From positions 1 through 26,232 of IMG/VR virus record IMGVR_UViG_3300006793_000238: DNA of 26,232 nt; one strand, given 5' to 3'. The notes under the pieces are model-generated. The model did no database searches. It saw only the letters and a program-made list of their open reading frames with translations, and was not told the DNA's origin. Numbering within the stretch: position 1 is the first letter of the stretch; every line of letters begins with the position of its first letter. This stretch comes from a virus. The position numbers were made by a program, and so were the translations under genes. Shown in pieces: positions 1,046 through 20,509 of the stretch.

Positions 1046-1079
1046 ATTATAGACTACCACACTATTTCAATCTTGTCAA
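1046..1079 (-). promoter_or_regulatory. possible weak or altered promoter
   Basis: TTGACA (1079-1074) and TATAAT (1051-1046) face the gene at 1024, but the spacer is 22 bp instead of 17. The flanks (TTGACAAG and TAGTCTATAAT) match those of the perfect promoter at 24998-25026, as if about 5 bp had been inserted. The TGA stop of the radical SAM gene lies inside TTGACA. Activity is doubtful. Confidence 0.35.
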
Positions 1080-2701
1080 GCCACTGAAAATGAAAGAGTT
1101 GAACTTTCATCATGTTTAACACATCCCTTAGACCATGCTTTGATACCGGCTGGTTCTTTATATTTTTGTTTAACTTTTTTATTAAGTCTCTCTATGCGAG
1201 TTTTTCCACCTTCTTGATAATCAGACCATTGTAAAGACTTGTACTCTTTCATGAGTTTATCGTATTTCTTTTGATCTTTTAGAGATGCTTTAATTTCTCC
1301 CCACCTTTCATCTGGAAAAAATGATAGAAGAGCAAAGATTTTGAGATAATCAAAAACTTCGTCATGCTGGATATATGGCTTGGGCATATTCAACACCCAC
1401 TCTGTTAGAATTCCACCTTTGGAAACATAATTCGGATCGATAAATCCAGCATCTACAGCCATACGTCTAAGCTCAATACCCCGATAGGGAACAAATGTCG
1501 AAACCGTTAATGCATCCCATCCACGACATTCCCGAGCAAATCTCGCTGTTTCCTCTACCATTTCTGGTGTTTCATAGGGCATTCCTAATATAACATTTAA
1601 GTTGTATGGAATATCTGAATTATTGATATACTCCATATGCTTTAAGTAAGTTTCATTGGTTACAGAACGGCTTAGGACTTCTCTGCGATACTGCTCATTG
1701 CCAGATTCTAATCCAAATGCCATGCGATATATACCTGCCTCTCGTAACATATCTAAAACATCAGGAGTACAGTTTTCAATACGGGTATTCATCCAGAATG
1801 GAATTTTGTATTTTGACCAGACTCTAGAAAACTCTTCAATCTCTTTTTTGGGTCTAGCTAAAAATGAGTCATCCATCATCATAATCATTTGAGGATTATG
1901 CTTTTCAATAATTCCAACAATTTCTTTTTCAATAACATCTGCACTCTTACGACGCATGAAATTACCTTGATTGTTTTCTTTGGAGAATGCCCGTTGTGAA
2001 GGTGAGTTGCAGTATGTACAATTGTATGGACACCCTCTGTAAGTCTCCATTGGTACAACTCTTTGGAATACTTTACCACCCATAGGTCTTGCCCATCGAG
2101 AATCATCAAACAAAGAAAAATCAGGTTCTACTGATGCAATGTTACAAAGTTCTTGTTCTACATTTGCATGTGAATGATCTTTGTATCTATAGGTGGTTCC
2201 TTTAATATTCTCTAAAGACTCATTGTTTTTCCAAGCATGGATAGCATCTCTTACAACATATTCACCCTCATGGTGACAAACCTGATTAATAACGTCATGT
2301 TGTAGCAGCACTTCTTTTGCGTCTCTAGCAAAGACACCACCAACAATATTTGGAATATTTTTATCTCTGATAGATTCTAGCAGTTCAATACCAAGTTTGT
2401 AAGTATCTTCTGCTACAGACATCAAAATTAAATCAGGATTATATTCTTTGACTTTAAATTGAAAATCACTTATCAGATTGTTAGGGTCACGAATTTCAAA
2501 AAACTCTTCTACATCAGATGTTTTATTTGCACCAATATTAGTCATAGTAACGTGTCTGTTTTTAAATTGGTCAGAATGATATGTTGTTTCAAAAATATCT
2601 ACTTCAACATCTTCTTCTTTACAGATAGCAGTGAACAACCCCACACTAAGTGCAGGGCTGAACATCATAGGCAGATTAGGGTAAAGGATTAGAATTTTCA
2701 T
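1076..2701 (-). CDS. B12-binding-domain radical SAM protein
   Basis: A 541-aa enzyme. The N-terminal part (about 1-165) is a cobalamin-binding-type Rossmann domain with PDLILMSV and GGVFARDAKEVLL...EGEY, typical of the B12-radical SAM family. The radical SAM core follows, with the cluster motif C224-PYN-C228-TY-C231, then MMDDSF and LGMPYET-type strands. Such enzymes do radical methylations, cyclisations or rearrangements. I see no classical DxHxxG cobalamin ligand, which is common in this family. It is the last gene of the glycan island and overlaps the previous gene by ATGA. The substrate is unknown; a lipid, sugar or peptide is possible. Confidence 0.9.
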   Translation of the reverse strand: MKILILYPNLPMMFSPALSVGLFTAICKEEDVEVDIFETTYHSDQFKNRHVTMTNIGANKTSDVEEFFEIRDPNNLISDFQFKVKEYNPDLILMSVAEDTYKLGIELLESIRDKNIPNIVGGVFARDAKEVLLQHDVINQVCHHEGEYVVRDAIHAWKNNESLENIKGTTYRYKDHSHANVEQELCNIASVEPDFSLFDDSRWARPMGGKVFQRVVPMETYRGCPYNCTYCNSPSQRAFSKENNQGNFMRRKSADVIEKEIVGIIEKHNPQMIMMMDDSFLARPKKEIEEFSRVWSKYKIPFWMNTRIENCTPDVLDMLREAGIYRMAFGLESGNEQYRREVLSRSVTNETYLKHMEYINNSDIPYNLNVILGMPYETPEMVEETARFARECRGWDALTVSTFVPYRGIELRRMAVDAGFIDPNYVSKGGILTEWVLNMPKPYIQHDEVFDYLKIFALLSFFPDERWGEIKASLKDQKKYDKLMKEYKSLQWSDYQEGGKTRIERLNKKVKQKYKEPAGIKAWSKGCVKHDESSTLSFSVA

Positions 2702-3294
2702 TTATGTACTCTAATTTCTAAGTTCTCTGGTTTCTTAAATGGTAAGTTGTCATGTTTATGGTGAATCACAAATTGTGTATCACTAAACTCTTTAAAAATA
2801 CCTTGAAAGATTGGACGCCATGTTCTGGTCAGTCTTTCGGTATTAGCTGCACCCCGGTCAGATGGGAGATAGAAATCGGTTTTTGATAGAATATTAAAAT
2901 CCATAATAGAATCAAAACCATAGAGATGAATTTCCTCACCTTTTAATTTGTTAGCAGCATAGTGTGTCGCAAAGTGACCACAGTTAAAATCAGTATAGTT
3001 CTTTGCATATTTAGGCAAAACAGTATAGAATTCTTTTACTTGTGGAGAATATTTCATATAGAAAGTTTGTCGCATCTCCATCCATTTTTGGGGTCTAACA
3101 CCTAGAACCCAAGGATAGGGATTAGTTACACTGCCTTCTGTAATTGCCTTCATCATCTTGAAGTCAACCATACAAGAAACAAAAATATTTGAAATATCAA
3201 ATGGTGGTAGGTTACAGGCAATCTTCAAGCCTTTTGCTGGCTGATACAGATGTGCGTTGTCACCATTACCAATAATATGAATTACTTTAGCCAT
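2698..3294 (-). CDS. DUF115/MptE-like Rossmann protein
   Basis: A 198-aa protein starting with a nucleotide-binding-like strand and turn, VIHIIGNGDNA (residues 4-14), followed by CNLPP and SCMVDFKMM, and later IHLYGFDSIMDF. The order 'G-G-S/N loop, N-x-P, D after a strand' resembles DUF115/MptE-like and sialyltransferase-like folds that accompany surface-sugar genes. No catalytic residues can be named with certainty. It abuts the glycosyltransferase upstream and overlaps the radical SAM gene downstream, so it belongs to the same operon. A sugar-transfer role is inferred from context. Confidence 0.55.
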   Translation of the reverse strand: MAKVIHIIGNGDNAHLYQPAKGLKIACNLPPFDISNIFVSCMVDFKMMKAITEGSVTNPYPWVLGVRPQKWMEMRQTFYMKYSPQVKEFYTVLPKYAKNYTDFNCGHFATHYAANKLKGEEIHLYGFDSIMDFNILSKTDFYLPSDRGAANTERLTRTWRPIFQGIFKEFSDTQFVIHHKHDNLPFKKPENLEIRVHK

Positions 3295-3981
3295 TTATTT
3301 CCAAGCATCCTTTACCCACTGTTGCGGTTTGTAAGTTCCAAATCCAGTATCTACAGTTTCGTTAATAGCCTGTACAATACTAGGTCTACCATGAAAACAG
3401 ACAATAGATGTTTTGTCTGATGGTTTTTCAGGGTACACATGATACTTATAGGACTTCAATTTACCGGGGTATTTTTGTTGAACAAAGTCTCTAGACAGAG
3501 GCGGGATATAGTCATTTAAGTATTCACCATCACCCCGGAACTGTCTCATGTTCCAAGGATTAGAATTAAATTGCTTCCAAGCATTATTATGAAAGTTATA
3601 ATCCCATGCCATTACAGCAGACTGCATTCTTCCTCTCAGAAACTTTTGGTGTGGGTTACTTGCGCCAAGGTCTTCAATACCCATAAACAAACCATCATAC
3701 TTCAGTAGCCAGTCAATATTACCAACAATCAGAGTATCAAGGTCAAGGTATACCATACGAGTGCCTAGACGGTTATCTGTGTTAAACAGTTGCAGTTTAT
3801 TCCACCAACCCTCATATCCCGGAAGCAAAGGAACAGTCTTGATACCTTCCATCTTTTTTCTGTCAGTCAAGCAGACAAATTTATGCTCTACAGTTGTGTT
3901 GCGTTCAACCATAGACTTGAGGTTATAGACATACTCATCACTAAACTTATCACCCCAAAATACACATGCTACTGTAACCAT
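3295..3981 (-). CDS. GT-A glycosyltransferase (GT8-like)
   Basis: A 228-aa protein from the chosen start. It opens with a beta strand (VTVACVFWG) and carries a DxD metal site, YLDLDTL (D80, D82), that binds a nucleotide-sugar with Mn2+. GYEGWWNKLQLF and GNIDWLL around it match GT8-type or capsular-polysaccharide transferases. I chose the ATG at 3981 because AAGGA stands 8 nt upstream and the previous stop ends one base before; a longer frame would start at 4020 inside the previous gene. It works with the neighbouring sugar genes. The donor sugar is unknown. Confidence 0.82.
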   Translation of the reverse strand: MVTVACVFWGDKFSDEYVYNLKSMVERNTTVEHKFVCLTDRKKMEGIKTVPLLPGYEGWWNKLQLFNTDNRLGTRMVYLDLDTLIVGNIDWLLKYDGLFMGIEDLGASNPHQKFLRGRMQSAVMAWDYNFHNNAWKQFNSNPWNMRQFRGDGEYLNDYIPPLSRDFVQQKYPGKLKSYKYHVYPEKPSDKTSIVCFHGRPSIVQAINETVDTGFGTYKPQQWVKDAWK

Positions 3982-3982
3982 C

Positions 3983-4837
3983 TTATAATCCTTTAGATAC
4001 TTGTTCCCATGCATAACCATTCCGTAGTTCTTCTACTGTAAACTCGGAATGAATATAATCCAAGAACCACTCTTCTCTGTCAGGTCGATTAGGATTTTCA
4101 ATATTACTAAAATCTTTGATAGGGTTAGATACAGGATATGCTACACTTCTAGGTCCAGTATAGGCAGGAATACCTTCTGTGATAGCACGAATACCCGGAC
4201 TGCTAGACCAGTTAACAACAGCCCATACATTATCAAAACTCAAATCAAATTCATCAAAAGCATTTACTTTCTTAGGTTGCTGTAACTCATCCACCAAACC
4301 ATAGAACTTATGATAGCTAATTGGAGCTCTAGGGTGTGGACGTAACGCAATAGGTCTGTCTGTATGTTCCCGAATACGTTCTACAGTTCTCATGATCCAG
4401 TTATCAGGATTTAACAGACCTTCCCATTGCTGACTCTTGCCATGCTGACAAGCAATCAAAATCCAGTCACCTGCATTGTTCCAAGGCTTCAGTTCTAGCT
4501 CCAGCTTTTCTGCTCTGGACATGTCTTTATCAATGTGTTGAAGGTATGGATAGTTTTTTTTGTTTACACCATTAAGACCAAGCTTCCATGTCTTGCCACG
4601 TTTAATGCTACCTACTTCCAGAACAAAGACAGGTTTGTCCTGTGCCTGAAACTTTTCAAACACTTCTTTGTTAGGCTTCATGCGACCATTCCAAAGAACA
4701 GACCAGATAACAGCAGCATCCGCATTCATATCATTTTCTACTACTGTATGACCATGAAACTCTAAACCGCTTTTAAGAGCATCGAAAATCTTTGGACTAT
4801 TCAAAGCACCATATTCTGTAAATAAACTAAATCGCAT
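3983..4837 (-). CDS. KpsC/S-like GT-B glycosyltransferase, paralog A
   Basis: A 284-aa protein. The N-terminal half has a Rossmann-like start (MRFSLFTEYGAL) and AAVIWSVLW; the C-terminal half has WILIACQHG, RPIALRPHPR, WAVVNWSSSPGIRAITEGIPAYTG and IENPNRPDREEWF. The HP-R and SSSPG-(x)n-EGIP boxes resemble the capsule transferases of the KpsC/KpsS type. The second half aligns well with the gene at 5503-6489 (same order of boxes, same ENPN...DREE and WE-x-V ending), so the two are paralogs separated by one gene. The acceptor and donor are unknown. Confidence 0.7.
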   Translation of the reverse strand: MRFSLFTEYGALNSPKIFDALKSGLEFHGHTVVENDMNADAAVIWSVLWNGRMKPNKEVFEKFQAQDKPVFVLEVGSIKRGKTWKLGLNGVNKKNYPYLQHIDKDMSRAEKLELELKPWNNAGDWILIACQHGKSQQWEGLLNPDNWIMRTVERIREHTDRPIALRPHPRAPISYHKFYGLVDELQQPKKVNAFDEFDLSFDNVWAVVNWSSSPGIRAITEGIPAYTGPRSVAYPVSNPIKDFSNIENPNRPDREEWFLDYIHSEFTVEELRNGYAWEQVSKGL

Positions 4838-5510
4838 CCTTCATACCTACCTTTGACATTTCAAAATAATCTCTCCACCAGTCTTCAGCATAATCTGTTT
4901 TATTGTATGCCTCAAACCAAGGACCACCTTCAGTGTAATGTACATTATTTACATCTTCTTTATAATCATACTCAGCAGCAAGCCAGTTCCATTCCAGAGG
5001 CAGTCCACCAATCTTTGTCTCATCATCCAGCCATTTGAACTGGTGTAGTTCTAGACCAGATGCAGAGTTAACATAGTCAGGTGTAAGTCTGGTACACTCT
5101 GCACAGTTCATCAGCATAAAACTAGACCAGTTCTTTTTAGGATACACTGTTTGTGTTTGATTTAAAAACTTTCTATCAGACTTAGGATGGTAATCATGCT
5201 GACAAACTTGTACTGCATATCTATCATCACGCATGCGCCATAGTTCAGCAATGTCTGCTTTCATCAACATGTCACAGTCCATGAACAATGCCCATCCTTG
5301 ATAGTTCATCAAATGAGGCACAATAAACCGACTAAAAGAAAACTCTGTAGAGGAAAGACTATTACGTTTCCTAGAAAAATCATCTTTAATATTTTTAAGG
5401 TAGATAGGTGTAATTGCTACAGGTTGTGTACTGTGCTTTAGAATAGAATATGATAGTGTGCTAAATGCTGCTTTTTCTTTACTGTCATATCCAATGAATA
5501 CATTAATCAT
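4827..5510 (-). CDS. GT-A glycosyltransferase (GT8-like)
   Basis: A 227-aa protein beginning INVFIGYDSKEKAAFSTLSY, typical of small GT8-like transferases in marine phages. The DxD site is FMDCDMLM (D78, D80). A C-terminal NVHYTEGGPWF gives the His often used for metal binding. It overlaps both neighbours by 8-11 nt, which points to coupled translation between the two paralogous GT-B genes. It probably adds one sugar during assembly of the same product; the sugar is not known. Confidence 0.82.
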   Translation of the reverse strand: MINVFIGYDSKEKAAFSTLSYSILKHSTQPVAITPIYLKNIKDDFSRKRNSLSSTEFSFSRFIVPHLMNYQGWALFMDCDMLMKADIAELWRMRDDRYAVQVCQHDYHPKSDRKFLNQTQTVYPKKNWSSFMLMNCAECTRLTPDYVNSASGLELHQFKWLDDETKIGGLPLEWNWLAAEYDYKEDVNNVHYTEGGPWFEAYNKTDYAEDWWRDYFEMSKVGMKDAI

Positions 5511-6489
5511 TGCCGTAGCCTCTTATGTTTCTTAGTTCTCTCCAAAGGTCACCACGCATAACCTCTTCCATGCTCCAATGTGAACCTGCATAGTAACGTA
5601 AAAATTCTTCTCTGTCAACTTCTAAATTTGGATTTTCAATGTCTTTTAACTCACCAGCAGACCACGGTTTTATATATGCTGCCTCATGTGTTGCAAATGT
5701 TGGAATACCCTGCATCATAGTCACTGCCCCAGCAGTGCTAGTAAGAACAACTGCTGCCCATGCATTCTTAATCTGCTGTGCAGACCAATCTGCTAAGTTT
5801 TTAGTTTCTTTATGATAATATACAAAGTCTGAAATATTCAGTGATAGCCAATTTAATGTGCTGTCAATACTATTCTTGTTTGGATGTCTACCCGGATGGT
5901 CTTTTACCTTAATAGGTCTGTCAGTATACTTTCTAATTTCAATACAAGTATCCACTAACCATTTGTAAACATCAATCCCTTGGTGTGACCATCCACCACC
6001 ACCTCTGTTAAGATAGATCAGGATATGTTTCCCATCTGTCTTCCAATCATGGATTTTGACATTAGTATTCTCTTGAATATATTTTACTTTGTTGTCTAAA
6101 TCAGGAGAACTAACAAAGAAGCTTTCATGGGGATGGATAGAGTACATTGGAAACCGATAGAAGTTCATATCAGATTCCATCTGCTTCAATACATTTCCCT
6201 CAAAGAAAAACATATTTTCTTGTTTGCCACCTCTTTGCAGAAAGGAATTGAATGCTCTGTCTCTGCCAACATTACCAGCAGTAGGCCAGCCCCATATCAT
6301 AGCAAAGTCTTTATCAGGGTCTAACTGACCATCTTCATTACCTCTAGTGATAATATGCTTGTCACCACATGCAGACACACCTTGCATCCATTCACTCATC
6401 AACTGTCTTTTATTAGCAGATGATGCAGTTACATGGTAAGCATTTAGTGTTAACTTTTTTTCTGGTGGATTAATCAGCTTCAATGGCAT
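5503..6489 (-). CDS. KpsC/S-like GT-B glycosyltransferase, paralog B
   Basis: A 328-aa protein. Boxes in the C-terminal half are HILIYLNRGGGGWSHQG, RPIKVKDHPGRHP, WAAVVLTSTAGAVTMMQGIP, IENPNLEVDREEF and EEVMRGDLWREL. These match, in the same order, those in the 284-aa protein at 3983-4837. Here the central loop is longer and glycine-rich. The fold suggested is GT-B of the capsule transferase type. It overlaps the methyltransferase upstream by 20 nt. Two diverged copies in one operon suggest two successive, similar sugar additions; this is inference. Confidence 0.7.
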   Translation of the reverse strand: MPLKLINPPEKKLTLNAYHVTASSANKRQLMSEWMQGVSACGDKHIITRGNEDGQLDPDKDFAMIWGWPTAGNVGRDRAFNSFLQRGGKQENMFFFEGNVLKQMESDMNFYRFPMYSIHPHESFFVSSPDLDNKVKYIQENTNVKIHDWKTDGKHILIYLNRGGGGWSHQGIDVYKWLVDTCIEIRKYTDRPIKVKDHPGRHPNKNSIDSTLNWLSLNISDFVYYHKETKNLADWSAQQIKNAWAAVVLTSTAGAVTMMQGIPTFATHEAAYIKPWSAGELKDIENPNLEVDREEFLRYYAGSHWSMEEVMRGDLWRELRNIRGYGND

Positions 6490-7093
6490 TTTTAAATTGC
6501 TTTACTGTTTTCAAATTGAGCCATTCTTTTCGATTGATATCGAAGTTTAACCATGACATATTTGATTCAGGAACAAACAAAGGTTCTTGTGAACCCTTTT
6601 TAATATAACCAATACCATAATCTATATCCACAGTCATCATGGTTAGGTTAGGATTTGAACGGTGCTTAACAAATGCTTTCCATGTTGTACCATTCCAAGT
6701 ACCATTACCAGTATACTCTTCTAGTGGCCTTTGGTGCCACTCTTCAGCAGGGTTGCAGTCATGTAGAACAATACATCCACCTTCATTTAAAGAATTCAAA
6801 GCATTCACAATATCCTTATCTACCTGTTCATAGACATGCAGCCCATCAATAAAGATAATATCAAAACCTGTGCCATGCTCTGCCCATGTCCAAAAAAATT
6901 CATCAGAAGTTACTTCAAATGCTGTTGTGTTTTTGCCTCTTGGTGTTGTGGCAAACTTTGGGTCTACTGCAACTTTAGTATCTACATTAATCTTGTTAAA
7001 ACAACCACTAGGCTTTCTAACCCCAATCTCAAGGTACGACTTGTAATTGTTTTGCTCAATCAAGTAATTGATAACATCATAACGGTACTTCAT
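6470..7093 (-). CDS. class I SAM-dependent methyltransferase
   Basis: A 207-aa protein with the SAM-binding strand YLEIGV (residues 20-25), an acidic second strand (VAVDPKF), and FDIIFIDGLHVYEQVDKDI followed by GGCIVLHD, the layout of the Methyltransf_24 group. Such enzymes often methylate sugars or small molecules in surface-polysaccharide clusters. It sits between the RmlB-like dehydratase (one base apart) and a glycosyltransferase (20-nt overlap), so sugar O-methylation is likely by context, but the acceptor is not shown. Confidence 0.82.
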   Translation of the reverse strand: MKYRYDVINYLIEQNNYKSYLEIGVRKPSGCFNKINVDTKVAVDPKFATTPRGKNTTAFEVTSDEFFWTWAEHGTGFDIIFIDGLHVYEQVDKDIVNALNSLNEGGCIVLHDCNPAEEWHQRPLEEYTGNGTWNGTTWKAFVKHRSNPNLTMMTVDIDYGIGYIKKGSQEPLFVPESNMSWLNFDINRKEWLNLKTVKQFKNAIEAD

Positions 7094-7094
7094 A

Positions 7095-8120
7095 TTACCA
7101 ATCTAACCACTCATTGTTTTTCAGGGTCCAGTCTACAGTCTCAATCAATCTGTCTCGGACAGGCTTTGGAGTCCAGCCCATCTCTGCCATCTTAGATCCA
7201 TCCAGTGCATAACGCAAATCATGTCCCGGACGTGAAGAATGAAAGTCTATCATTTCATAGTTCAGTGCTTTACCTTGAATGTCTGCAATCATCTTTGCCA
7301 GTTCAAGGTTATCAAGTTCTTCACCACCAACAATATTAAACTTCTGACACTTGGCTCCACCATAATCAGGAGAGAGTTTACTCATATCATAGTTCAGCAG
7401 GAAGTAGAGAGCATCTGCAACATCACTAGCATGAATGTAATGGCGTGAACCTGCCTTCTCTTTGGTAGGGTCACTGTGCACAGTAATCTTCTCACCATCC
7501 CGTGCACGTTTGATACACATAGGAATATATTTCTCAGGGTGTTGCCGTTCACCAAATACATTCATTGTATGGGTAATAATAGCAGGGAGCTTGTAGGTAT
7601 TCTCATATGCCACTACCAATTCCTCTGCCCCAGCCTTGGATGCACTGTAGGGGTTAGTAGAGTTGTATCGGTCATTCTCTTTATAGTTAACACCTTCAGG
7701 TGCAGGACCAAACACTTCATCTGTAGAGAAGTAAATAAACCGTTCCAGACCTTCTACTTTACGAGCATATTCCAGAATGTTCACAGTACCAATAACATTG
7801 TCCATCACAAATTCCATAGGATATTCAATACTACGGTCCACATGACTACCAGCAGCCAAGTGCGCAATGTAGTCTACATGCCCGATCATATTAATAATCT
7901 GTGGGTTAAGTTCTGCTTTCAGGTCATGAAAGACTGTGCGTACACGGTTCTGTGTAGCCTTTTCATGCCGACGAACTACATCATGCAGTCTGTTGAGATT
8001 ACCACTATAGTCCAGTCTGTCCAGAGTTACAATATTCCAGTCAGTCTTGGCTAGAAGATAATCCACCACGTGGTGTGCAATAAAGCCAGCGCCACCTGTA
8101 ATCAAAATAGTTTTACTCAT
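7095..8120 (-). CDS. rmlB: dTDP-glucose 4,6-dehydratase-like (RmlB-type) SDR
   Basis: A 341-aa extended short-chain dehydrogenase, close to the family's usual length. It has the NAD-binding GGAGFIAHH (9-17), the dehydratase signature STDEVFGP with T133-D134-E135, the catalytic Y158-SAS-K162, and MNVFGERQHPEKYIP. These fit NDP-glucose 4,6-dehydratases that make NDP-4-keto-6-deoxyhexose, the entry to deoxy and amino sugars. No RmlA, C or D is seen in the window, so the host must supply the activated sugar, or the donor differs. It overlaps the GT-B gene upstream by 8 nt. Confidence 0.9.
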   Translation of the reverse strand: MSKTILITGGAGFIAHHVVDYLLAKTDWNIVTLDRLDYSGNLNRLHDVVRRHEKATQNRVRTVFHDLKAELNPQIINMIGHVDYIAHLAAGSHVDRSIEYPMEFVMDNVIGTVNILEYARKVEGLERFIYFSTDEVFGPAPEGVNYKENDRYNSTNPYSASKAGAEELVVAYENTYKLPAIITHTMNVFGERQHPEKYIPMCIKRARDGEKITVHSDPTKEKAGSRHYIHASDVADALYFLLNYDMSKLSPDYGGAKCQKFNIVGGEELDNLELAKMIADIQGKALNYEMIDFHSSRPGHDLRYALDGSKMAEMGWTPKPVRDRLIETVDWTLKNNEWLDW

Positions 8121-9054
8121 TAGATAGTTCCTTTACCACTTCAATCCATTGTTCAGCAATTTTAATGTCAGATAAGTTCTGCTGTATATATTCCTGCCCT
8201 AAACGTATTCTTTCCAGTGTCTGTGCAGGATTATTCAGACACTCAATCATATTGTCTACAAAGTTATCATTTACATAGGCATAGTCAGAAAACTTTAAAT
8301 AGCTGTCCTGACCAGAAGCAAGCACCATAGTACCACAGGCTAAACCATCTACCAGTTTGTTATGGCTTTTACCAATAGTAAAAGGGTGTGTAGGATCAAT
8401 AGGAAGAATTACAAAATCAGATTTAGACGCAATAATCTTTTGAATTCTTTCATTCCACTTTACATTTCTAGACTCACCATTCAAAGACTTCACACCAGTA
8501 GGCATAGTGCCGTTGCGGTTAATCACAGTAAACTTGATAGGGGGTAGTTCATCTTGCCGTGCCTTTAGTGGATCAAAGACAAGCTTCTTCCAGTCAGCGT
8601 ACTGCAAGTTGCCATCATTACCATACCAAGTTACTTTCAAAATATCTTTAGGTTCAAACTTGGGTTCTTCAAACTCATAGAATACAGGGTCATCAACAAT
8701 AAAAACTTTCTTGTTAATTCCTATAGACTTTAGTTCATGTTCAATATGCTCTTTCAACTTATTAGTTGTGGTGGTAATAGCATCACACTTCTTGAGGATT
8801 TGTAATGCCTGTCCTCTACGCCTGTCAGCAAAGTAATTATCACACACATCCCAAATCATCTTCTTACACTTGGGGTTCCAGTGCTGAATACTTGTTTTAG
8901 AAATAACACCAATACTATCAGAGTTGACAGGATTATTAAAGCCACCATCAAATCCAATCTTCTCCATACCATTTGATGGAGTGATAATTCTAATTCTAGA
9001 AGATGCTGATATTTTTCCGTTTAGATCAATCGGATTAAGAAATCTTAGGTTCAT
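8113..9054 (-). CDS. GT-B-like glycosyltransferase
   Basis: A 313-aa protein from the ATG at 9054. It begins MNLRFLNPIDLNGK; a middle strand and helix (MIWDVCDNYF, CDAITTTTNKL) and a C-terminal FTIGKSHNKLVDGLACGTMVLAS match the donor-binding domain of GT-B (GT4-like) enzymes, where K and the small-residue loop hold the nucleotide. A longer frame opens at 9114, but that would overlap the previous gene by 80 nt; the inner ATG overlaps by 20, as elsewhere in this operon. It shares the operon with rmlB and may use its product. Confidence 0.72.
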   Translation of the reverse strand: MNLRFLNPIDLNGKISASSRIRIITPSNGMEKIGFDGGFNNPVNSDSIGVISKTSIQHWNPKCKKMIWDVCDNYFADRRRGQALQILKKCDAITTTTNKLKEHIEHELKSIGINKKVFIVDDPVFYEFEEPKFEPKDILKVTWYGNDGNLQYADWKKLVFDPLKARQDELPPIKFTVINRNGTMPTGVKSLNGESRNVKWNERIQKIIASKSDFVILPIDPTHPFTIGKSHNKLVDGLACGTMVLASGQDSYLKFSDYAYVNDNFVDNMIECLNNPAQTLERIRLGQEYIQQNLSDIKIAEQWIEVVKELSNE

Positions 9055-9625
9055 AGTCAAAATTAATATTTCCCGCAATAGTATAACGTTTATAGTCGGA
9101 CCACTGTACCTCATGCTGCAAGTGACTTGGGAAAATAATGAATTTTCCTTCTGTCAAGTCTTCTGTGTATATCTCTCTTTGGAAATACTTTTGATTATAC
9201 ATTGTGTTATGAAATACAGTAGTATTAGGTTCTTCTAAGTGCAGCAAATATATTAAGCACAAATCTGCTCCCGGATGATCATGTAATTCATGCATTCCCA
9301 TTTTATCATATCTATTATACCAATACTGAATATTTTTCAAGGGATACGAATTAAAATCTAATTCTTTAATAACTTCATTTAAAATAGGAATAACAACTTT
9401 TTCTGTAAATTGTTCATAATCGATTGTACTATTTGGAGAATAATATGAAGTATTAGAATTAAATTCGGCAGCCCATACATCACGATTCTGTTGTGATGCA
9501 ATAGTATTATTATCTTCTATTTCTTGGTCAATAGAAGATACAAAATGTTGCTTCCACTTATCATGTTCAGGAACATCTTTAACAGCAATAAAATGAGTAT
9601 GAAACTCTCTAATATCTAAAGTCAT
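9035..9625 (-). CDS. 2OG-Fe(II) oxygenase-like protein (PF13759-like)
   Basis: A 196-aa protein. IQYWYNRYDKMGMHELHDH (H112, H115, H117) with CLIYLLHL after it, then FIIFPSHLQHEV (H168, H171) and KRYTIAGNINF (R180) match the double-stranded beta-helix of putative 2OG-Fe(II) oxygenases: metal His near the first motif, distal His, and an Arg for 2-oxoglutarate. The substrate is unknown. It sits between the SPASM radical SAM gene and a glycosyltransferase, overlapping both, so hydroxylation of a sugar, lipid or peptide in the same pathway is plausible. Codon use is AT-richer than in rmlB. Confidence 0.75.
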   Translation of the reverse strand: MTLDIREFHTHFIAVKDVPEHDKWKQHFVSSIDQEIEDNNTIASQQNRDVWAAEFNSNTSYYSPNSTIDYEQFTEKVVIPILNEVIKELDFNSYPLKNIQYWYNRYDKMGMHELHDHPGADLCLIYLLHLEEPNTTVFHNTMYNQKYFQREIYTEDLTEGKFIIFPSHLQHEVQWSDYKRYTIAGNINFDYEPKIS

Positions 9626-10559
9626 TTAAGTTAAACCTTGTACCATGCATTTTATATAAGTCTCTAGTGTGATTGGTATACACTAATACTTCTGGATCAT
9701 CAATCAGAAAGTCACAGTCTTTACAGAAATCGGGGTAGTTGCCTGTAAGATGCTGCTGTCTTAACTCTGTATACTTATCACCTGTCCAAATCTCATCAAT
9801 ACTTTGATCTGATACATGACCCAGAATAGCATCATCATCTCTACCAAGTACTTGACAACAGGGAGTTACTGCCCCCCACTTACCCGGCTTTCCCCCAGCC
9901 CGAATAACAAGATCAGGAGAGAAAGGTCTACCGCAGGTCTTCACCTCTCCTGTGCGTTCTTCAGGTGGACGATACACACCCGACCAATTGTGCATCTTCC
10001 AAATCTCTGTCTGGACTCCTGCACTCTCTACAATCTTGCGGTATTGCTCTACTTCATAGTCAACATTATCATTATCCATAATCAGGTGATAGGTTGATAC
10101 GTTACAAAAAGAGCCAGATTGATTTACATACGATTGCATCTCATGAAGATTGTTAATTACAATATCAAAGTAATCTGAATTCATCCATGCCTTGTAGGTC
10201 TCTTTGTTGTAACCAATAATTGAAAACCTATAGAAATCTGTACCAGCATCCACAACTCTCTTCATAAAGTTGCCTTGCATCTTATACCCATTAGAGAACA
10301 TAAATGCTTTGGCGCCATACTTCTTTACAATCTTGACATACTCAGGCAAGTCAGGGTTAAGGGTAGGCTCACCAGAACCTTCAAGGTTGACAACATTCAA
10401 CCCCTTATCAGACAACTCTTCAATGATTGCTTCGAAGTTTTTGAGACTAAGTTTTTTTAGCCAATTCTTCCCCCTGCCACCGGGAGAAGACTGTGGACAC
10501 ATCTGACAACTGTAGTTGCATCCACCATTAATCTCAATTACTGCTCTGTCGATATTCAT
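9609..10559 (-). CDS. radical SAM/SPASM protein
   Basis: A 316-aa enzyme. The radical SAM cluster motif is C14-NYS-C18-QM-C21, followed by the SAM-binding NLEGSGEPTLNP and FMFSNGY. The C-terminal SPASM part has TCGRPF, TPCCQVLG and FCKDCDF, enough cysteines for extra Fe-S clusters, and ILGHVSDQSIDEIW. SPASM proteins modify peptides or sugars or act as anaerobic maturases; many occur in O-antigen and capsule clusters. It opens the glycan island. The substrate is not known. Confidence 0.9.
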   Translation of the reverse strand: MNIDRAVIEINGGCNYSCQMCPQSSPGGRGKNWLKKLSLKNFEAIIEELSDKGLNVVNLEGSGEPTLNPDLPEYVKIVKKYGAKAFMFSNGYKMQGNFMKRVVDAGTDFYRFSIIGYNKETYKAWMNSDYFDIVINNLHEMQSYVNQSGSFCNVSTYHLIMDNDNVDYEVEQYRKIVESAGVQTEIWKMHNWSGVYRPPEERTGEVKTCGRPFSPDLVIRAGGKPGKWGAVTPCCQVLGRDDDAILGHVSDQSIDEIWTGDKYTELRQQHLTGNYPDFCKDCDFLIDDPEVLVYTNHTRDLYKMHGTRFNLNDFRY

Positions 10560-15559: not shown

Positions 15560-16239
15560 TATACCTCTGGAAACAAACATTTATCAATAAAAAGTCTAAC
15601 ATCATCTTCACCTAATCCTAGAGAAGTCATAGTTCTAGGAGTGTGAGGATTTTGCTTTTGGTAGTGTGCATATGTATTCTGTGCTTCTTTACCAAGATCA
15701 TCATTAACATAGGTATCATTAAAATTACCAATATGATTTAGATAATAGGAAAGCCCTTCATTGACCATATCTGCAATCATATTCATTTCAGTTTCTTCTG
15801 AGACATTACCTGCTGCTACCATATAACGACTGAAAATTTTCTTAGCCCAATCGGGTAGTGTTCTGGTTTTGCCATATCCATACTTTGCCATAGTGTTACC
15901 AAACCAGTTCACCATTGGGTGATTAATATCAGTTGTCGGGCTAAAATCAAAGAATGCACCTGTAATCTTTTTCTGACCAGCAATTACATCAAATCCAAAA
16001 ACAGGTGCATCACTCTTTAGATGTGGGAAAATGCAAACATGCATCATCCAGAGTTTCTTTGTTTCTCTAGCATCAACTACATCTACATGCGCTCTGCGAT
16101 AATCATTAGAATTCCAGACCCTATTAACCCATCCGGGACGATTAAATTGATCCATCCCATCTTCTTGGATTTCTTCCCCTGTCGAATCTAATTCAGTCTC
16201 AATCAGATTCTGAATTTTGGTCAGTTTGTCCCAAATCAT
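15559..16239 (-). CDS. pcyX: ferredoxin-dependent bilin reductase (PcyA/PcyX-like)
   Basis: A 226-aa protein, the size of phage FDBRs. The segment WMMHVCIFPHL...APVFGFDVIAG...FFDFSP (residues 64-101) matches the FDBR core. H67 and D84 fall at the spacing of the catalytic His88 and Asp105 of PcyA; HVDV (D53) stands about where PcyA has Glu76. The C-terminus (YAHYQKQNPHTPRTM, FIDKCLFPE) is FDBR-like. The enzyme reduces biliverdin IXalpha with ferredoxin electrons to a phycobilin. Which bilin cannot be read with certainty; the PcyX subgroup from oceanic phages makes phycoerythrobilin. It overlaps the heme oxygenase gene by 41 nt. Confidence 0.88.
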   Translation of the reverse strand: MIWDKLTKIQNLIETELDSTGEEIQEDGMDQFNRPGWVNRVWNSNDYRRAHVDVVDARETKKLWMMHVCIFPHLKSDAPVFGFDVIAGQKKITGAFFDFSPTTDINHPMVNWFGNTMAKYGYGKTRTLPDWAKKIFSRYMVAAGNVSEETEMNMIADMVNEGLSYYLNHIGNFNDTYVNDDLGKEAQNTYAHYQKQNPHTPRTMTSLGLGEDDVRLFIDKCLFPEV

Positions 16240-16786
16240 TTGTTAATTTATCCAGTTCAAGAAAAATATAGTGAGCATGGTCAAAAGCTCGCATTGCCTC
16301 TTCTGCCATATCATTATTTAGTTTTTCTCTTAACTTCTCTTTCAGATAATCTTCTTCAACCATAAACTTGTAAAAGGCTCTAGGGAAACTCGCATCAAGT
16401 CGTTTAGCAATAATCTGACCACCAGACAAATCACCCATATGTCGGACATAGATATGTGCTAAGATTTTATGTTTATCATGTTTAATTGAATGAAGATAGT
16501 CAATATACTCTTCAGTAGAGGAAAGAATAGGTGGAGTTGTATAGTTTAACCCTCTAAACCTTCTATAATCTTTCCAGATATTATCTGTACGACGAATACT
16601 GTCAATATCGTCTAGTACACCAAGGGACATTGCAATATTTTCTAAAGTGCCATATAGAAACCCCATATTGTAAAGGTAGATATAATATTCCATTGCTTGG
16701 ATTTTACCTGATACAAGTTTCTTAGCAAAGTTAGAACGTTCTGCATCCTTGTGGTGGTTCATTGTCAGTTCACGGAGTTTAAGCAT
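16199..16786 (-). CDS. ho: heme oxygenase
   Basis: A protein of about 195 aa. NHHKDAERS gives the proximal heme His (H12 from this start) and YVRHMGDLSGGQ (118-124 for GDLSGGQ) is the heme oxygenase signature helix. The reaction is heme plus oxygen and electrons (ferredoxin) to biliverdin IXalpha, iron and CO. Product and cofactor fit the bilin reductase encoded right after. I prefer the ATG at 16786, with AGGG nine bases upstream; another ATG at 16792 is only three bases from that site. It overlaps guaC by 8 nt, so the three genes are coupled. Confidence 0.92.
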   Translation of the reverse strand: MLKLRELTMNHHKDAERSNFAKKLVSGKIQAMEYYIYLYNMGFLYGTLENIAMSLGVLDDIDSIRRTDNIWKDYRRFRGLNYTTPPILSSTEEYIDYLHSIKHDKHKILAHIYVRHMGDLSGGQIIAKRLDASFPRAFYKFMVEEDYLKEKLREKLNNDMAEEAMRAFDHAHYIFLELDKLTNDLGQTDQNSESD

Positions 16787-17888
16787 TTTCATATACCCTA
16801 TTATATTGATTATTCACCTTAACAAATGTAGCACACTTTGTCAAGTCTTTTAGTTGTCTTGCACCAACATAGGTACAGGTAGAACGCAGACCACCAAGAA
16901 TATATTGAATAGTGTCTGCTACAGGACCACGATAAGGAACAAGAATATCACGACCTTCTGATGCACGATAACCTTTTAGACCACCTGCATGTTTTTGATT
17001 TGCTGTATCAGATGACATACCATAGAACTGCCTAAACTCTTTCTTTTCAATAACAGGCTTGTAGACTTCATCATCTTTCATAAAATAGTATTCGTTGTTA
17101 TGAATATACTTGTGAACAGGTTCACCACCACCTTCATCATGACCTGCCAGCATACCACCTAACATTACAAAGTCAGCACCTGCTGCAAATGCTTTTGCTA
17201 CATCGCCCGGAGAAACGCAACCACCGTCAGCGACAATGTGACCACCAAGACCATGAGCAGCATCCGCACACTCCATAACCGTTGATAGTTGCGGATAGCC
17301 AACACCAGTAACAATACGAGTTGTGCAAACACTTCCAGGCCCAATACCCACTTTAACCACGTCAGCTCCATTTAGAATCAACTCCTGTGTCTGATCAGCA
17401 GTTACAACATTTCCTGCAATGATAATGTTATTTACACCACAAAGTTCACGGATAGATTTAACGAACTTTACATACTTTTCCATATATCCGTTAGGTGTAT
17501 CAATACAGATAATAGGATACTTGCCTTTGAGAATACGAACCTTTTCATAGTCAGCGTCTTGCATACCTACAGTCAAACAAAGACTTTCTTTCATGCGTTC
17601 TTTGTCATAGATATCAGCATGCAAATGTAGGTTAGATAGGTCTTGGATTTGATAGCTTTTATTCATGGCAACAATCATATGTTCTTTAGAGAACTCTTTT
17701 GCCATTTCAATTGTACCAACACCATCCATGTTAGCAGCAATGATAGGGAGAACATCAATAACTCTTTGAGAGTGTGGAAACTTGAATGAACGAGTAAGTT
17801 TGACTTCTTTACGAGATTCTAATGTAGATCGTTTTGGTCTTAAAAGAACGTCTGAATAATCTAACTTAGTATCACTCTCAATATGCAT
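16779..17888 (-). CDS. guaC: GMP reductase
   Basis: A 369-aa TIM-barrel enzyme of the IMPDH/GMPR family, without CBS domains. [14 protein letters not shown] starts it; the catalytic loop is [20 protein letters not shown] with C188, and [19 protein letters not shown] plus [13 protein letters not shown] are much closer to GuaC than to IMP dehydrogenase. It converts GMP to IMP with NADPH, feeding purine salvage towards adenine nucleotides for phage DNA. AGGAGT precedes the ATG. It lies 23 nt after tRNA-Thr and overlaps the heme oxygenase frame. IMP dehydrogenase activity is the less likely alternative. Confidence 0.9.
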
Positions 17889-17911: not shown

Positions 17912-17987
17912 TGGTGCCGCAAGTAGGACTTGAACCCACAACCTATTGATTACAAATCAATTGCTCTACCAGTTGAGCTATTGCGGC
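17912..17987 (-). tRNA. tRNA-Thr(TGT)
   Basis: A full cloverleaf of 76 nt on the minus strand: acceptor GCCGCAA/TTGCGGC, D arm GCTC/GAGC, anticodon arm ATTGA-TTTGTAA-TCAAT with anticodon TGT, T arm GTGGG/CCTAC with TTCAAGT loop. CCA is encoded. It reads ACA codons. It ends 23 nt before guaC. Confidence 0.95.
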
Positions 17988-18175
17988 ATAATATAAAATG
18001 TATAGGGAGGATTAAGGATTACCTCCAATGGCCCACTGGCAAACTCCTGTCTACTCGGTCCAAACCTACCTGCATCCGCTAAGACGGGCCGCTAAACCCC
18101 TTCGGTATTACCTTATCCGCATCTGCCACGGATTATTCAGTCACTATACTATTCCTGCCGTCGCAGGAAACTTGT
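17988..18175 (-). ncRNA. candidate structured RNA between two tRNAs
   Basis: This 188-nt stretch has no convincing ORF and is clearly richer in G+C than the genes around it. On the minus strand I see a 7-bp hairpin TTCCTGC-GACG-GCAGGAA (18169-18152), ATCCG...CGGAT (18133-18115), GGAGG...CCTCC (18026-18006), and TTAGCGG twice within 25 nt. No tRNA cloverleaf can be made. It must be part of the same transcript as tRNA-Pro and tRNA-Thr. I do not recognise the family. Confidence 0.4.
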
Positions 18176-19408: not shown

Positions 19409-19843
19409 TTATGCAAATTGTAAATCAACCTCAGCAGTTTCAAGCATACCTTCACCAGTAAAGTATGGAACTTCAACATCATCATAGGTGTCTTTGATCA
19501 GTGTAGAAGCATCACCATGAATATGCACAAGACCTGCATCATTCCAAGTATAGACTGTTACATTATAGTCACCTGTCCAAATGTTAGGTTCATCTGCTTC
19601 AACCCAATCTAATACTGCATCTAGTGTCATCTGCGCATCAATACCTTCATCATCTTCTACAAGATATTTTACACCAGCCTGTGGTTCTGTCAAGATTTCA
19701 CTTTCATGGTAATAAGACAAAGTAGGAACTTCACTCTCAGTATCATCTACTTTTTCACCTGCAATGAATTCATTGTAAATAATCCATCCACCAATAAAAG
19801 CAGTCAATGTAAGACCAACTGCACCCAATCCCAAAAATAACAT
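19409..19843 (-). CDS. membrane-anchored protein, unknown
   Basis: A 144-aa protein with one N-terminal transmembrane segment (FLGLGAVGLTLTAFIGGWIIY, about residues 3-24) and an acidic soluble part with beta-rich sequence (YNVTVYTW, GLVHIHGDAS). Cys is absent. AGGAG eight bases before the ATG is the start signal; this site is complementary to the 3' extension of tRNA-Arg just upstream. The function is unknown. Confidence 0.65.
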   Translation of the reverse strand: MLFLGLGAVGLTLTAFIGGWIIYNEFIAGEKVDDTESEVPTLSYYHESEILTEPQAGVKYLVEDDEGIDAQMTLDAVLDWVEADEPNIWTGDYNVTVYTWNDAGLVHIHGDASTLIKDTYDDVEVPYFTGEGMLETAEVDLQFA

Positions 19844-19867
19844 TATATAATCTCCTAATAAAATTTG

Positions 19868-19966
19868 TTAGGACAGTTTGCGGACCTACTAGGATTCGAA
19901 CCTAGAATAGAGGTTTAGAAGACCACTGTGATATCCATTTCACCATAGGTCCGCAAACTGTCCTAA
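19868..19966 (-). repeat. 21-bp perfect inverted repeat enclosing tRNA-Arg
   Basis: The 21 bases at 19868-19888 and 19946-19966 are perfect reverse complements. Seven pairs are the tRNA acceptor stem; 14 more extend it, including the discriminator G73 paired with C-1. The 3' end of the extension (TCCTAA) is also complementary to the TTAGGA of the next gene's ribosome binding site at 19853-19858. Confidence 0.9.
19881..19952 (-). tRNA. tRNA-Arg(TCT)
   Basis: A 72-nt cloverleaf without CCA: acceptor GGACCTA/TAGGTCC, discriminator G, D arm GTGA/TCAC, anticodon arm GTGGT-CTTCTAA-ACCTC with anticodon TCT (two of the stem pairs are weak or G-U), T arm CTAGG/CCTAG with TTCGAAT loop. It reads AGA. 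Unlike the other three tRNAs here, CCA is not encoded and must be added. Confidence 0.9.
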
Positions 19967-19978
19967 TCTATACTGTAT

Positions 19979-20509
19979 CTATTGCCCTGACAACATAGTG
20001 ATAATAACCATCACTGCTACTTTATCACCAATACGGTATCGTTTATCTACAACAGTGCTACCATATTGACCATTCCACTCGTAGTAAATAGTATAGTTAT
20101 CGACTACAGATTCTATTTGATCAACATATTGAATAGAACATTGTTTCTGTTTTTCATATCCTACAATACGAGTTTTATCAGCACGACCTGCTTCTGCTGC
20201 AACTACACCACCAATAACTGCTCCCGCTGCTGCACCCTCATCTTTTTCTGTAATTGCTTTACCAAACAAACCACCAATAATAGCACCACCCAGAACTTCT
20301 AGACCTGTAGCACCTTGACCTTGTACTGTATCGTAGATAGGAACATCTACAAAACTACAAATATTTTTACGGGCAGGAGTTACCAGCTCAATATAGTTAG
20401 GTGTAACAGATGTAATAGTTGCATAAACAACATCATCTGCTGCTGCTTTAAGAGGAATAGTTAGGGCAAGAACTGCCCCAACAATACCTGCTAGAATTTT
20501 ATTTTTCAT
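19979..20509 (-). CDS. envelope protein with glycine-zipper 2TM domain (17-kDa antigen/YcfJ-like)
   Basis: A 176-aa protein with a signal peptide (MKNKILAGIVGAVLALTIPL, cleavage near AAA-DD). A glycine zipper, EVLGGAIIGGLFG and GAAAGAVIGGVVAAEAG (71-108), is followed by QIESVVDNYTIYYEWNGQYG and RIGDKVAVMV, the C-terminal sheet of bacterial YcfJ/17-kDa surface antigen proteins. It is likely exported to the periplasm or outer membrane of the infected cell. I chose the ATG at 20509, with GGAA upstream; a longer frame runs inside the lipoprotein gene. It overlaps that gene by 11 nt. Confidence 0.75.
   Translation of the reverse strand: MKNKILAGIVGAVLALTIPLKAAADDVVYATITSVTPNYIELVTPARKNICSFVDVPIYDTVQGQGATGLEVLGGAIIGGLFGKAITEKDEGAAAGAVIGGVVAAEAGRADKTRIVGYEKQKQCSIQYVDQIESVVDNYTIYYEWNGQYGSTVVDKRYRIGDKVAVMVIITMLSGQ

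What the first reader, a model, noticed from the sequence alone, without database searches (positions are those of the whole stretch)
19841..19966. tRNA-Arg in a 21-bp perfect helix whose 3' arm can also mask the next gene's ribosome binding site
The acceptor stem is extended by 14 perfect base pairs, far beyond a normal tRNA leader/trailer. The end of the 3' extension (TCCTAA) can pair with the leader TTAGGA or with the TTAGGA of the next gene's ribosome binding site (19858-19853), a 6-bp hairpin with a 9-nt loop. The two pairings exclude each other. tRNA processing (RNase III, P, Z) could thus switch translation of the 144-aa membrane protein. This is also the only one of the four tRNAs without encoded CCA.
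Basis: partly seen in the sequence, partly recalled or inferred. Interest (0 to 1): 0.75.

Follow-up and report, generated by a model that had tools for sequence, protein, structure and literature searches.

The report
Phage tRNA-Arg with conserved helical handle
In a small group of marine viruses of bacteria, one arginine tRNA gene sits inside two matching 14- to 15-base arms that would fold into an unusually long handle; the handle stays perfectly paired while the tRNA inside it is exchanged, which suggests that the handle matters, probably for cutting the tRNA out of the transcript.

Summary
The window's tRNA-Arg(UCU) carries a perfect 14-bp extension of its acceptor stem (21 bp in all) and is the only one of four tRNAs without encoded CCA. 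Five other IMG/VR contigs have the same cassette in the same slot before the 144-aa gene. The arms are perfectly paired in all six (15 bp in one). Every arm difference is compensated: three pairs changed on both sides, plus one inserted pair. Between L010 and L011 the flanks are 97-98% identical and the arms 100%, but the tRNA interior only 54%: the tRNA was exchanged while the arms stayed. Unarmed sister phages carry an ordinary tRNA-Arg with CCA in the slot. Among 630 distinct tRNAs read in the fetched DNA, only these six extend beyond 4 bp. The proposed RBS switch is not supported: the hairpin (-4.7 kcal/mol) weakens in L012, is absent in L016, and the same TTAGGA precedes genes after arm-less tRNAs. 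Most likely the arms are a processing helix, cut first by host RNase III, then trimmed and given CCA by the host. That step is inferred. Template switching could create such arms and mimic covariation. New variant of a known kind (phage tRNA genes).

The parts
19953..19966 (-). 5' arm TTAGGACAGTTTGC
   Evidence: Perfect complement of 19868-19881; identical in L010, L011, L013; one compensated change in L012; two compensated changes plus one inserted pair in L016
19882..19952 (-). tRNA-Arg(UCU), nucleotides 1-72 (no encoded CCA; discriminator G is 19881)
   Evidence: ARAGORN, Rfam tRNA 62.7 bits
19868..19881 (-). 3' arm GCAAACTGTCCTAA (includes discriminator G73)
   Evidence: As for the 5' arm
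19853..19858 (-). TTAGGA, core of the ribosome binding site of the 144-aa gene; could pair with the end of the 3' arm if the 5' arm were gone
   Evidence: -4.7 kcal/mol hairpin; not conserved in L016
19409..19843 (-). Gene downstream of the slot: 144-aa protein, hydrophobic N-terminus, no Pfam or PHROGs match
   Evidence: conserved in all armed and unarmed relatives
19979..20509 (-). Gene upstream of the slot: glycine-zipper protein (weak Pfam PF05433/PF13488, below cut-off)
   Evidence: 86-91% aa identity to the armed relatives

Best explanation
A phage tRNA-Arg(UCU) gene is embedded between two protein genes on the same strand, inside a conserved 14-15-bp extension of its acceptor stem. The arms act as a processing helix. 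In the transcript they form a 21-22-bp helix with the tRNA as its loop; host RNase III cuts this helix, which frees the tRNA from the mRNA. Short paired remnants are trimmed by RNase P and 3' nucleases, and the host CCA-adding enzyme supplies the CCA the gene lacks. Shown here: the helix, its conservation by compensatory change, its restriction to one slot and one phage clade, the link with CCA loss, and exchange of the tRNA body inside constant arms. Inferred: co-transcription, RNase III as the enzyme, the order of steps, CCA addition, and that the tRNA is made and charged.
For: Perfect arms in six loci. On 6 distinct sequences 126/126 helix cells pair, 5 pairs have changes on both sides (3 in the arms), and the covariation score exceeds all 500 shuffles and all slid registers. 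Arms 100% identical where the upstream 300 nt differ by 12% and 4-fold sites by 15-23% (window against L010, L011, L013). tRNA interior swapped (54%) between 97-98% identical flanks while the arms stay (L010 against L011). All six lack CCA; all Arg(UCU) tRNAs of unarmed relatives have GCCA. A covariance model separates armed loci (101-123 bits) from ordinary tRNA-Arg (52-64). A length of 21-22 bp suits RNase III (own knowledge). RNase III takes part in maturation of T4 tRNAs and cuts the rRNA stems (reviewed in PMC4810235). All six tRNAs are in the sense orientation of the gene behind them. No phage RNase III was found in 7 related records, so the host enzyme would be used.
Against: No RNA data, no isolate, host unknown. 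Sister phages keep Arg(UCU) in the same slot with no arms, so the arms are not needed for making such a tRNA. Paired extension of an acceptor stem should hinder RNase P and RNase Z; without RNase III cleavage the tRNA might not mature. Compensated changes can also come from template switching without selection (PMC8794818). Only six sequences, four with identical arms.
Confidence: 0.5

Rival explanations
1. The arms were created by one template-switch event that copied the leader in reverse onto the trailer (overwriting CCA) and are kept perfect by repeated template switching between the arms; little or no function.
For: Perfection of the arms, loss of CCA, and paired multi-base changes in L016 fit the mechanism described in PMC8794818. 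The arms hug the acceptor stem exactly.
Against: Arms are identical between the window and L010/L011/L013 although neighbouring sites have diverged. Template switching between arms would also invert the spacer at times, yet the tRNA has one orientation in 6/6. No unarmed relative carries the arm sequence as a simple leader.
Confidence: 0.22
2. The long helix is an mRNA element: it protects or punctuates the transcript between the glycine-zipper gene and the 144-aa gene (block to exonucleases, RNase III cut that sets mRNA ends), and the tRNA is the loop.
For: Fixed slot between two genes on one strand; arms more constant than the tRNA body.
Against: The tRNA body keeps full tRNA features and the UCU anticodon in every version, so the tRNA itself is selected. 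Unarmed relatives keep the gene order without the helix. No U-tract follows the helix, so it is not a terminator (one search lists none there).
Confidence: 0.13
3. One reading: tRNA processing frees the 3' arm to pair with TTAGGA and represses the 144-aa gene.
For: Pairing possible in the window, L010, L011, L013 (-4.7 to -5.6 kcal/mol).
Against: Weak in L012 (-2.2), absent in L016; same RBS core after arm-less tRNAs.
Confidence: 0.07
4. The arms are ends of a mobile tRNA cassette or a recombination handle by which phages exchange tRNA bodies.
For: tRNA interior swapped within constant arms; in L012 a gene is inserted with its edge at the 5' arm.
Against: Always the same slot, no other location, no target duplication seen; the arms enclose no tRNA in 15 matching bacterial genome places. 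tRNA-Thr appears to be exchanged in these phages without any arms.
Confidence: 0.08

Closest known systems
Phage T4 tRNA cluster, matured with RNase III, RNase E and RNase P (RNase III part: PMC4810235 and its refs 47, 48)
   Same: tRNA genes of a T4-like phage, Arg(UCU) among them, released from a longer transcript with host enzymes
   Different: There RNase III acts on a cluster precursor; to my knowledge no T4 tRNA has its acceptor stem extended by 14 bp. Here a single tRNA between two protein genes has its own closed helix and no CCA
Bacterial rRNA processing stalks (leader-trailer helices of 16S and 23S rRNA)
   Same: Long helix formed by leader and trailer that encloses a mature RNA and is cut by RNase III
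   Different: Here the helix encloses a tRNA and is a direct continuation of its acceptor stem; RNase III cutting not shown
Split (trans-spliced) tRNAs of archaea such as Nanoarchaeum equitans (own knowledge)
   Same: Long complementary extensions attached to tRNA sequence
   Different: Those join two half genes at the anticodon; here the gene is whole and the extension lies outside the acceptor end
Hairpins made by template switching in DNA replication (PMC8794818)
   Same: Perfect arms and multi-base compensated changes
   Different: A mutational origin, not a function; can coexist with the processing role

Membership tests
Phage tRNA gene | Cloverleaf with tRNA covariance score and a sense anticodon | tested here: met
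   Rfam RF00005 62.7 bits in the window, 68-73 bits in L011, L012, L016; ARAGORN Arg(UCU) in all six
Phage tRNA gene | Ordinary unpaired leader and trailer | tested here: not met
   14-15 bp extension; 622 of 630 surveyed tRNAs have 0-1 pairs, two have 2 or 4, six have 14-15
RNase III processing helix | Uninterrupted helix of about two turns formed by leader and trailer | tested here: met
   21-22 bp including the acceptor stem, one G-U in L016
RNase III processing helix | Staggered cleavage by RNase III | not testable with these tools
   Needs RNA from infected cells or in-vitro cleavage
RBS-sequestering switch | Alternative pairing with the RBS conserved among homologues | tested here: not met
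   Absent in L016, weakened in L012
Intrinsic terminator | U-tract right after the helix | tested here: not met
   CAAATTTTATT or CAATATAATAT follows; no site called there
Mobile cassette with terminal inverted repeats | Occurrence at different sites with target duplication | tested here: not met
   Same slot in all six; none with a tRNA in genome contigs; a small sample

The most novel reading that the evidence does not exclude
A tRNA 'socket': a conserved 19-20-bp helical frame (arms plus the outer acceptor stem) that commits whatever Arg(UCU) tRNA is recombined into it to an RNase III- and CCA-addition-dependent maturation route, letting the phage exchange tRNA bodies (for instance to escape tRNA-cutting defences, cf. 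PMC10264068, PMC11555353, listed) while keeping production constant, or holding back a pool of end-protected pre-tRNA.
Probability: 0.15. Interest if true: 0.75.

Novelty: new variant of a known kind. Interest (0 to 1): 0.5.

Why it matters
In the tRNAs I surveyed, leaders and trailers are essentially unpaired (0-1 bp), as the enzymes that make tRNA ends are understood to need. A clade of phages that keeps a perfect 14-15-bp extension through compensated changes, drops CCA, and exchanges the tRNA inside it points to a different maturation route for one tRNA. It is directly testable and bears on how phages keep their tRNAs working while tRNA-targeting defences and recombination change them.

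Tried and rejected
RBS switch: tested on six armed and many unarmed loci, not conserved. Terminator: no U-tract. Mobile element: same slot only; the 15 genome contigs places with the same arms enclose no tRNA and include long palindromes and chance matches inside genes. Phage-encoded RNase III: none in 7 related records, which are fragments. Armed tRNAs in bacterial genomes: none in 399 of one phylum, but only 10 candidates per genome were scored, so weak. Named relatives: the 144-aa protein has no match in INPHARED; PhoH matches T4-like cyanophages at about 50% only, so the host stays unknown. Nearest INPHARED tRNA-Arg genes (Proteus phage RP7, Morganella phage MP1, Escherichia phage ECBP2, Roseobacter phage CRP-13, Lysinibacillus phage LC76P1, a Kuravirus) and Listeria phage A511 tRNA-Lys have 0-1 extra pairs. 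Searches (wrong string length; wrong handle; bad search term) failed and gave nothing. No paper describing such a tRNA was found, in an open-access library only.

Full report
What was checked. On the minus strand the window holds a tRNA-Arg with anticodon UCU at 19952-19880. The 14 nucleotides before it (TTAGGACAGTTTGC, 19966-19953) and the 14 that start with its discriminator base (GCAAACTGTCCTAA, 19881-19868) are perfect complements and continue the 7-bp acceptor stem to 21 bp. The predicted fold has -48.2 kcal/mol against -27.4 for shuffles, z -6.3. The chance of 14 Watson-Crick pairs beside a given tRNA at this base composition is about 9e-9. The other three tRNAs of the window encode CCA and have at most one extra pair.

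Relatives. The 144-aa protein behind the tRNA has no Pfam, PHROGs or INPHARED match but is found in IMG/VR contigs. Five contigs carry the same cassette in the same slot: L010, L011, L012, L013 and L016. Less close relatives (L001-L003, L018, L022-L026, L030, L139, L146-L148) have in the same slot an ordinary tRNA-Arg(UCU) with encoded GCCA and 0-1 extra pairs; in L004-L006 the slot holds no tRNA and an ordinary tRNA-Arg with GCCA lies elsewhere in the contig; L027 has no tRNA in the slot and no tRNA-Arg in the fetched stretch. The upstream glycine-zipper gene groups the six armed loci together (87-97% nucleotide identity) apart from L018 and L002 (71-76%), which fits one origin of the arms.

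Conservation of the helix. L012 changes the fourth pair from G-C to A-U on both sides. L016 changes pairs five and six on both sides and inserts one T-A pair, giving a 15-bp extension, with one G-U in the acceptor stem. On the alignment of six, all 126 cells of the helix pair, five pairs have changes on both sides (three in the arms, two in the acceptor stem), and the covariation score exceeds all 500 shuffles and all slid registers. The folds of the armed relatives have z-scores of -6.2 to -7.8, those of unarmed L002 and L018 -1.9 and -1.3. Four of the six have identical arms, so the number of independent events is small.

Arms constant, tRNA exchanged. Between L010 and L011 the 300 nt upstream are 98% identical, the 5' arm with five acceptor bases 100%, the tRNA interior 54%, the 3' side 100%, and the 100 nt downstream 97%. 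The window and L010 share one tRNA type; L011, L012/L013 and L016 have others. The tRNA body has thus been replaced in place while the frame stayed. Similar exchange seems to occur at the arm-less tRNA-Thr slot, so the arms are not needed for exchange. In L012 a gene was inserted between the glycine-zipper gene and the cassette, with its edge at the 5' arm; the arms remain perfect.

How unusual it is. Among 630 distinct tRNAs read in the fetched DNA, mostly from phage contigs, extensions are 0 (211), 1 (411), 2 (1), 4 (1), 14 (5) and 15 (1); the six long ones are these loci (first version of the count). This set is not random, since many loci were fetched by a tRNA 3'-end pattern. A covariance model gives 101-123 bits to the five armed relatives and 52-64 to ordinary tRNA-Arg genes of their kin. 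The arm pattern in 84,980 bacterial and archaeal genomes gave 15 places, none with a tRNA inside. A sample of 399 genomes of one phylum gave nothing, but few candidates were scored there.

The switch hypothesis. With the 5' arm absent, the end of the 3' arm can pair with TTAGGA of the ribosome binding site at -4.7 kcal/mol in the window, L011 and L013, -5.6 in L010, -2.2 in L012 and not at all in L016. The changes that keep the helix are thus changes that weaken the RBS pairing. TTAGGA is also the RBS core after the arm-less tRNA-Thr and tRNA-Leu of the window and in unarmed relatives. I reject the switch as the reason for the arms, while it may happen by accident in some members.

Most likely mechanism. 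A 21-22-bp uninterrupted helix formed by leader and trailer is what host RNase III cuts in rRNA precursors, and RNase III takes part in making T4 tRNAs (PMC4810235). The discriminator is paired and CCA is missing, two features expected to make direct cutting by RNase P and RNase Z poor (general knowledge of these enzymes). I infer that RNase III opens the precursor, remnants are trimmed, and the host adds CCA. The tRNA is presumably used: AGA is the commonest arginine codon in the window (38%) and Arg(UCU) is found in almost all kin. None of the processing steps has been observed.

Main rival. Template switching in replication can make a perfect hairpin in one event and restore its pairing in later ones (PMC8794818). 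It would explain the origin, the loss of CCA and the block of changes in L016 with no selection. The identity of the arms while neighbouring sequence diverges by about 12%, the constant orientation and the constant association with an intact tRNA speak for selection in addition, but the sample is too small to settle it.

Novelty. I found no description of phage tRNAs with such arms in the papers searched, all open access. I rate it a new variant of a known kind.

Noticed in passing
17996-18168 (-): A manA RNA (Rfam RF01745, 60.3 bits) lies between tRNA-Pro and tRNA-Thr, ahead of a GMP reductase-like gene; the same motif sits after tRNA-Pro in L005 and L027 and is not detected in L011, where tRNA-Pro and tRNA-Thr are adjacent. 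A presumed cis-regulatory RNA with a tRNA gene between it and its gene is odd.
   Followed up: partly
17912-17987 (-); L011:12699-12772; L016:5912-5987; L005:6988-7063: tRNA-Thr(UGU) bodies also look exchanged in place: very different bodies are followed by nearly the same downstream sequence. In-place replacement of tRNAs may be general in these phages.
   Followed up: partly
L012 / L034:4530-5085: A gene of about 178 codons is inserted between the glycine-zipper gene and the tRNA cassette, its edge at the 5' arm; the sequence directly upstream of the slot also differs in L001, L004, L005 and L027.
   Followed up: partly
17888, 19843 and 24093 (gene starts, -): Of 42 gene starts checked only the three genes that directly follow a tRNA gene have TTAGGA within 22 nt upstream; genes behind tRNAs seem to share a strong RBS.
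   Followed up: partly
L111, L116, L120 (Olsenella sp. An285); L110, L114, L121 (Atopobiaceae MAG): Long palindromes built from TGACAGTTTGCCCGGG...CCCGGGCAAACTGTCA, several places per genome (three were read, L110, L111, L116): apparently a dispersed palindromic element, unrelated to the tRNA.
   Followed up: no
16199-16792 (-) and 1076-10559 (-): The window carries a gene that looks like heme oxygenase and a long run of glycosyltransferase-like, radical-SAM-like and sugar epimerase-like genes (read from the translations, not searched).
   Followed up: no
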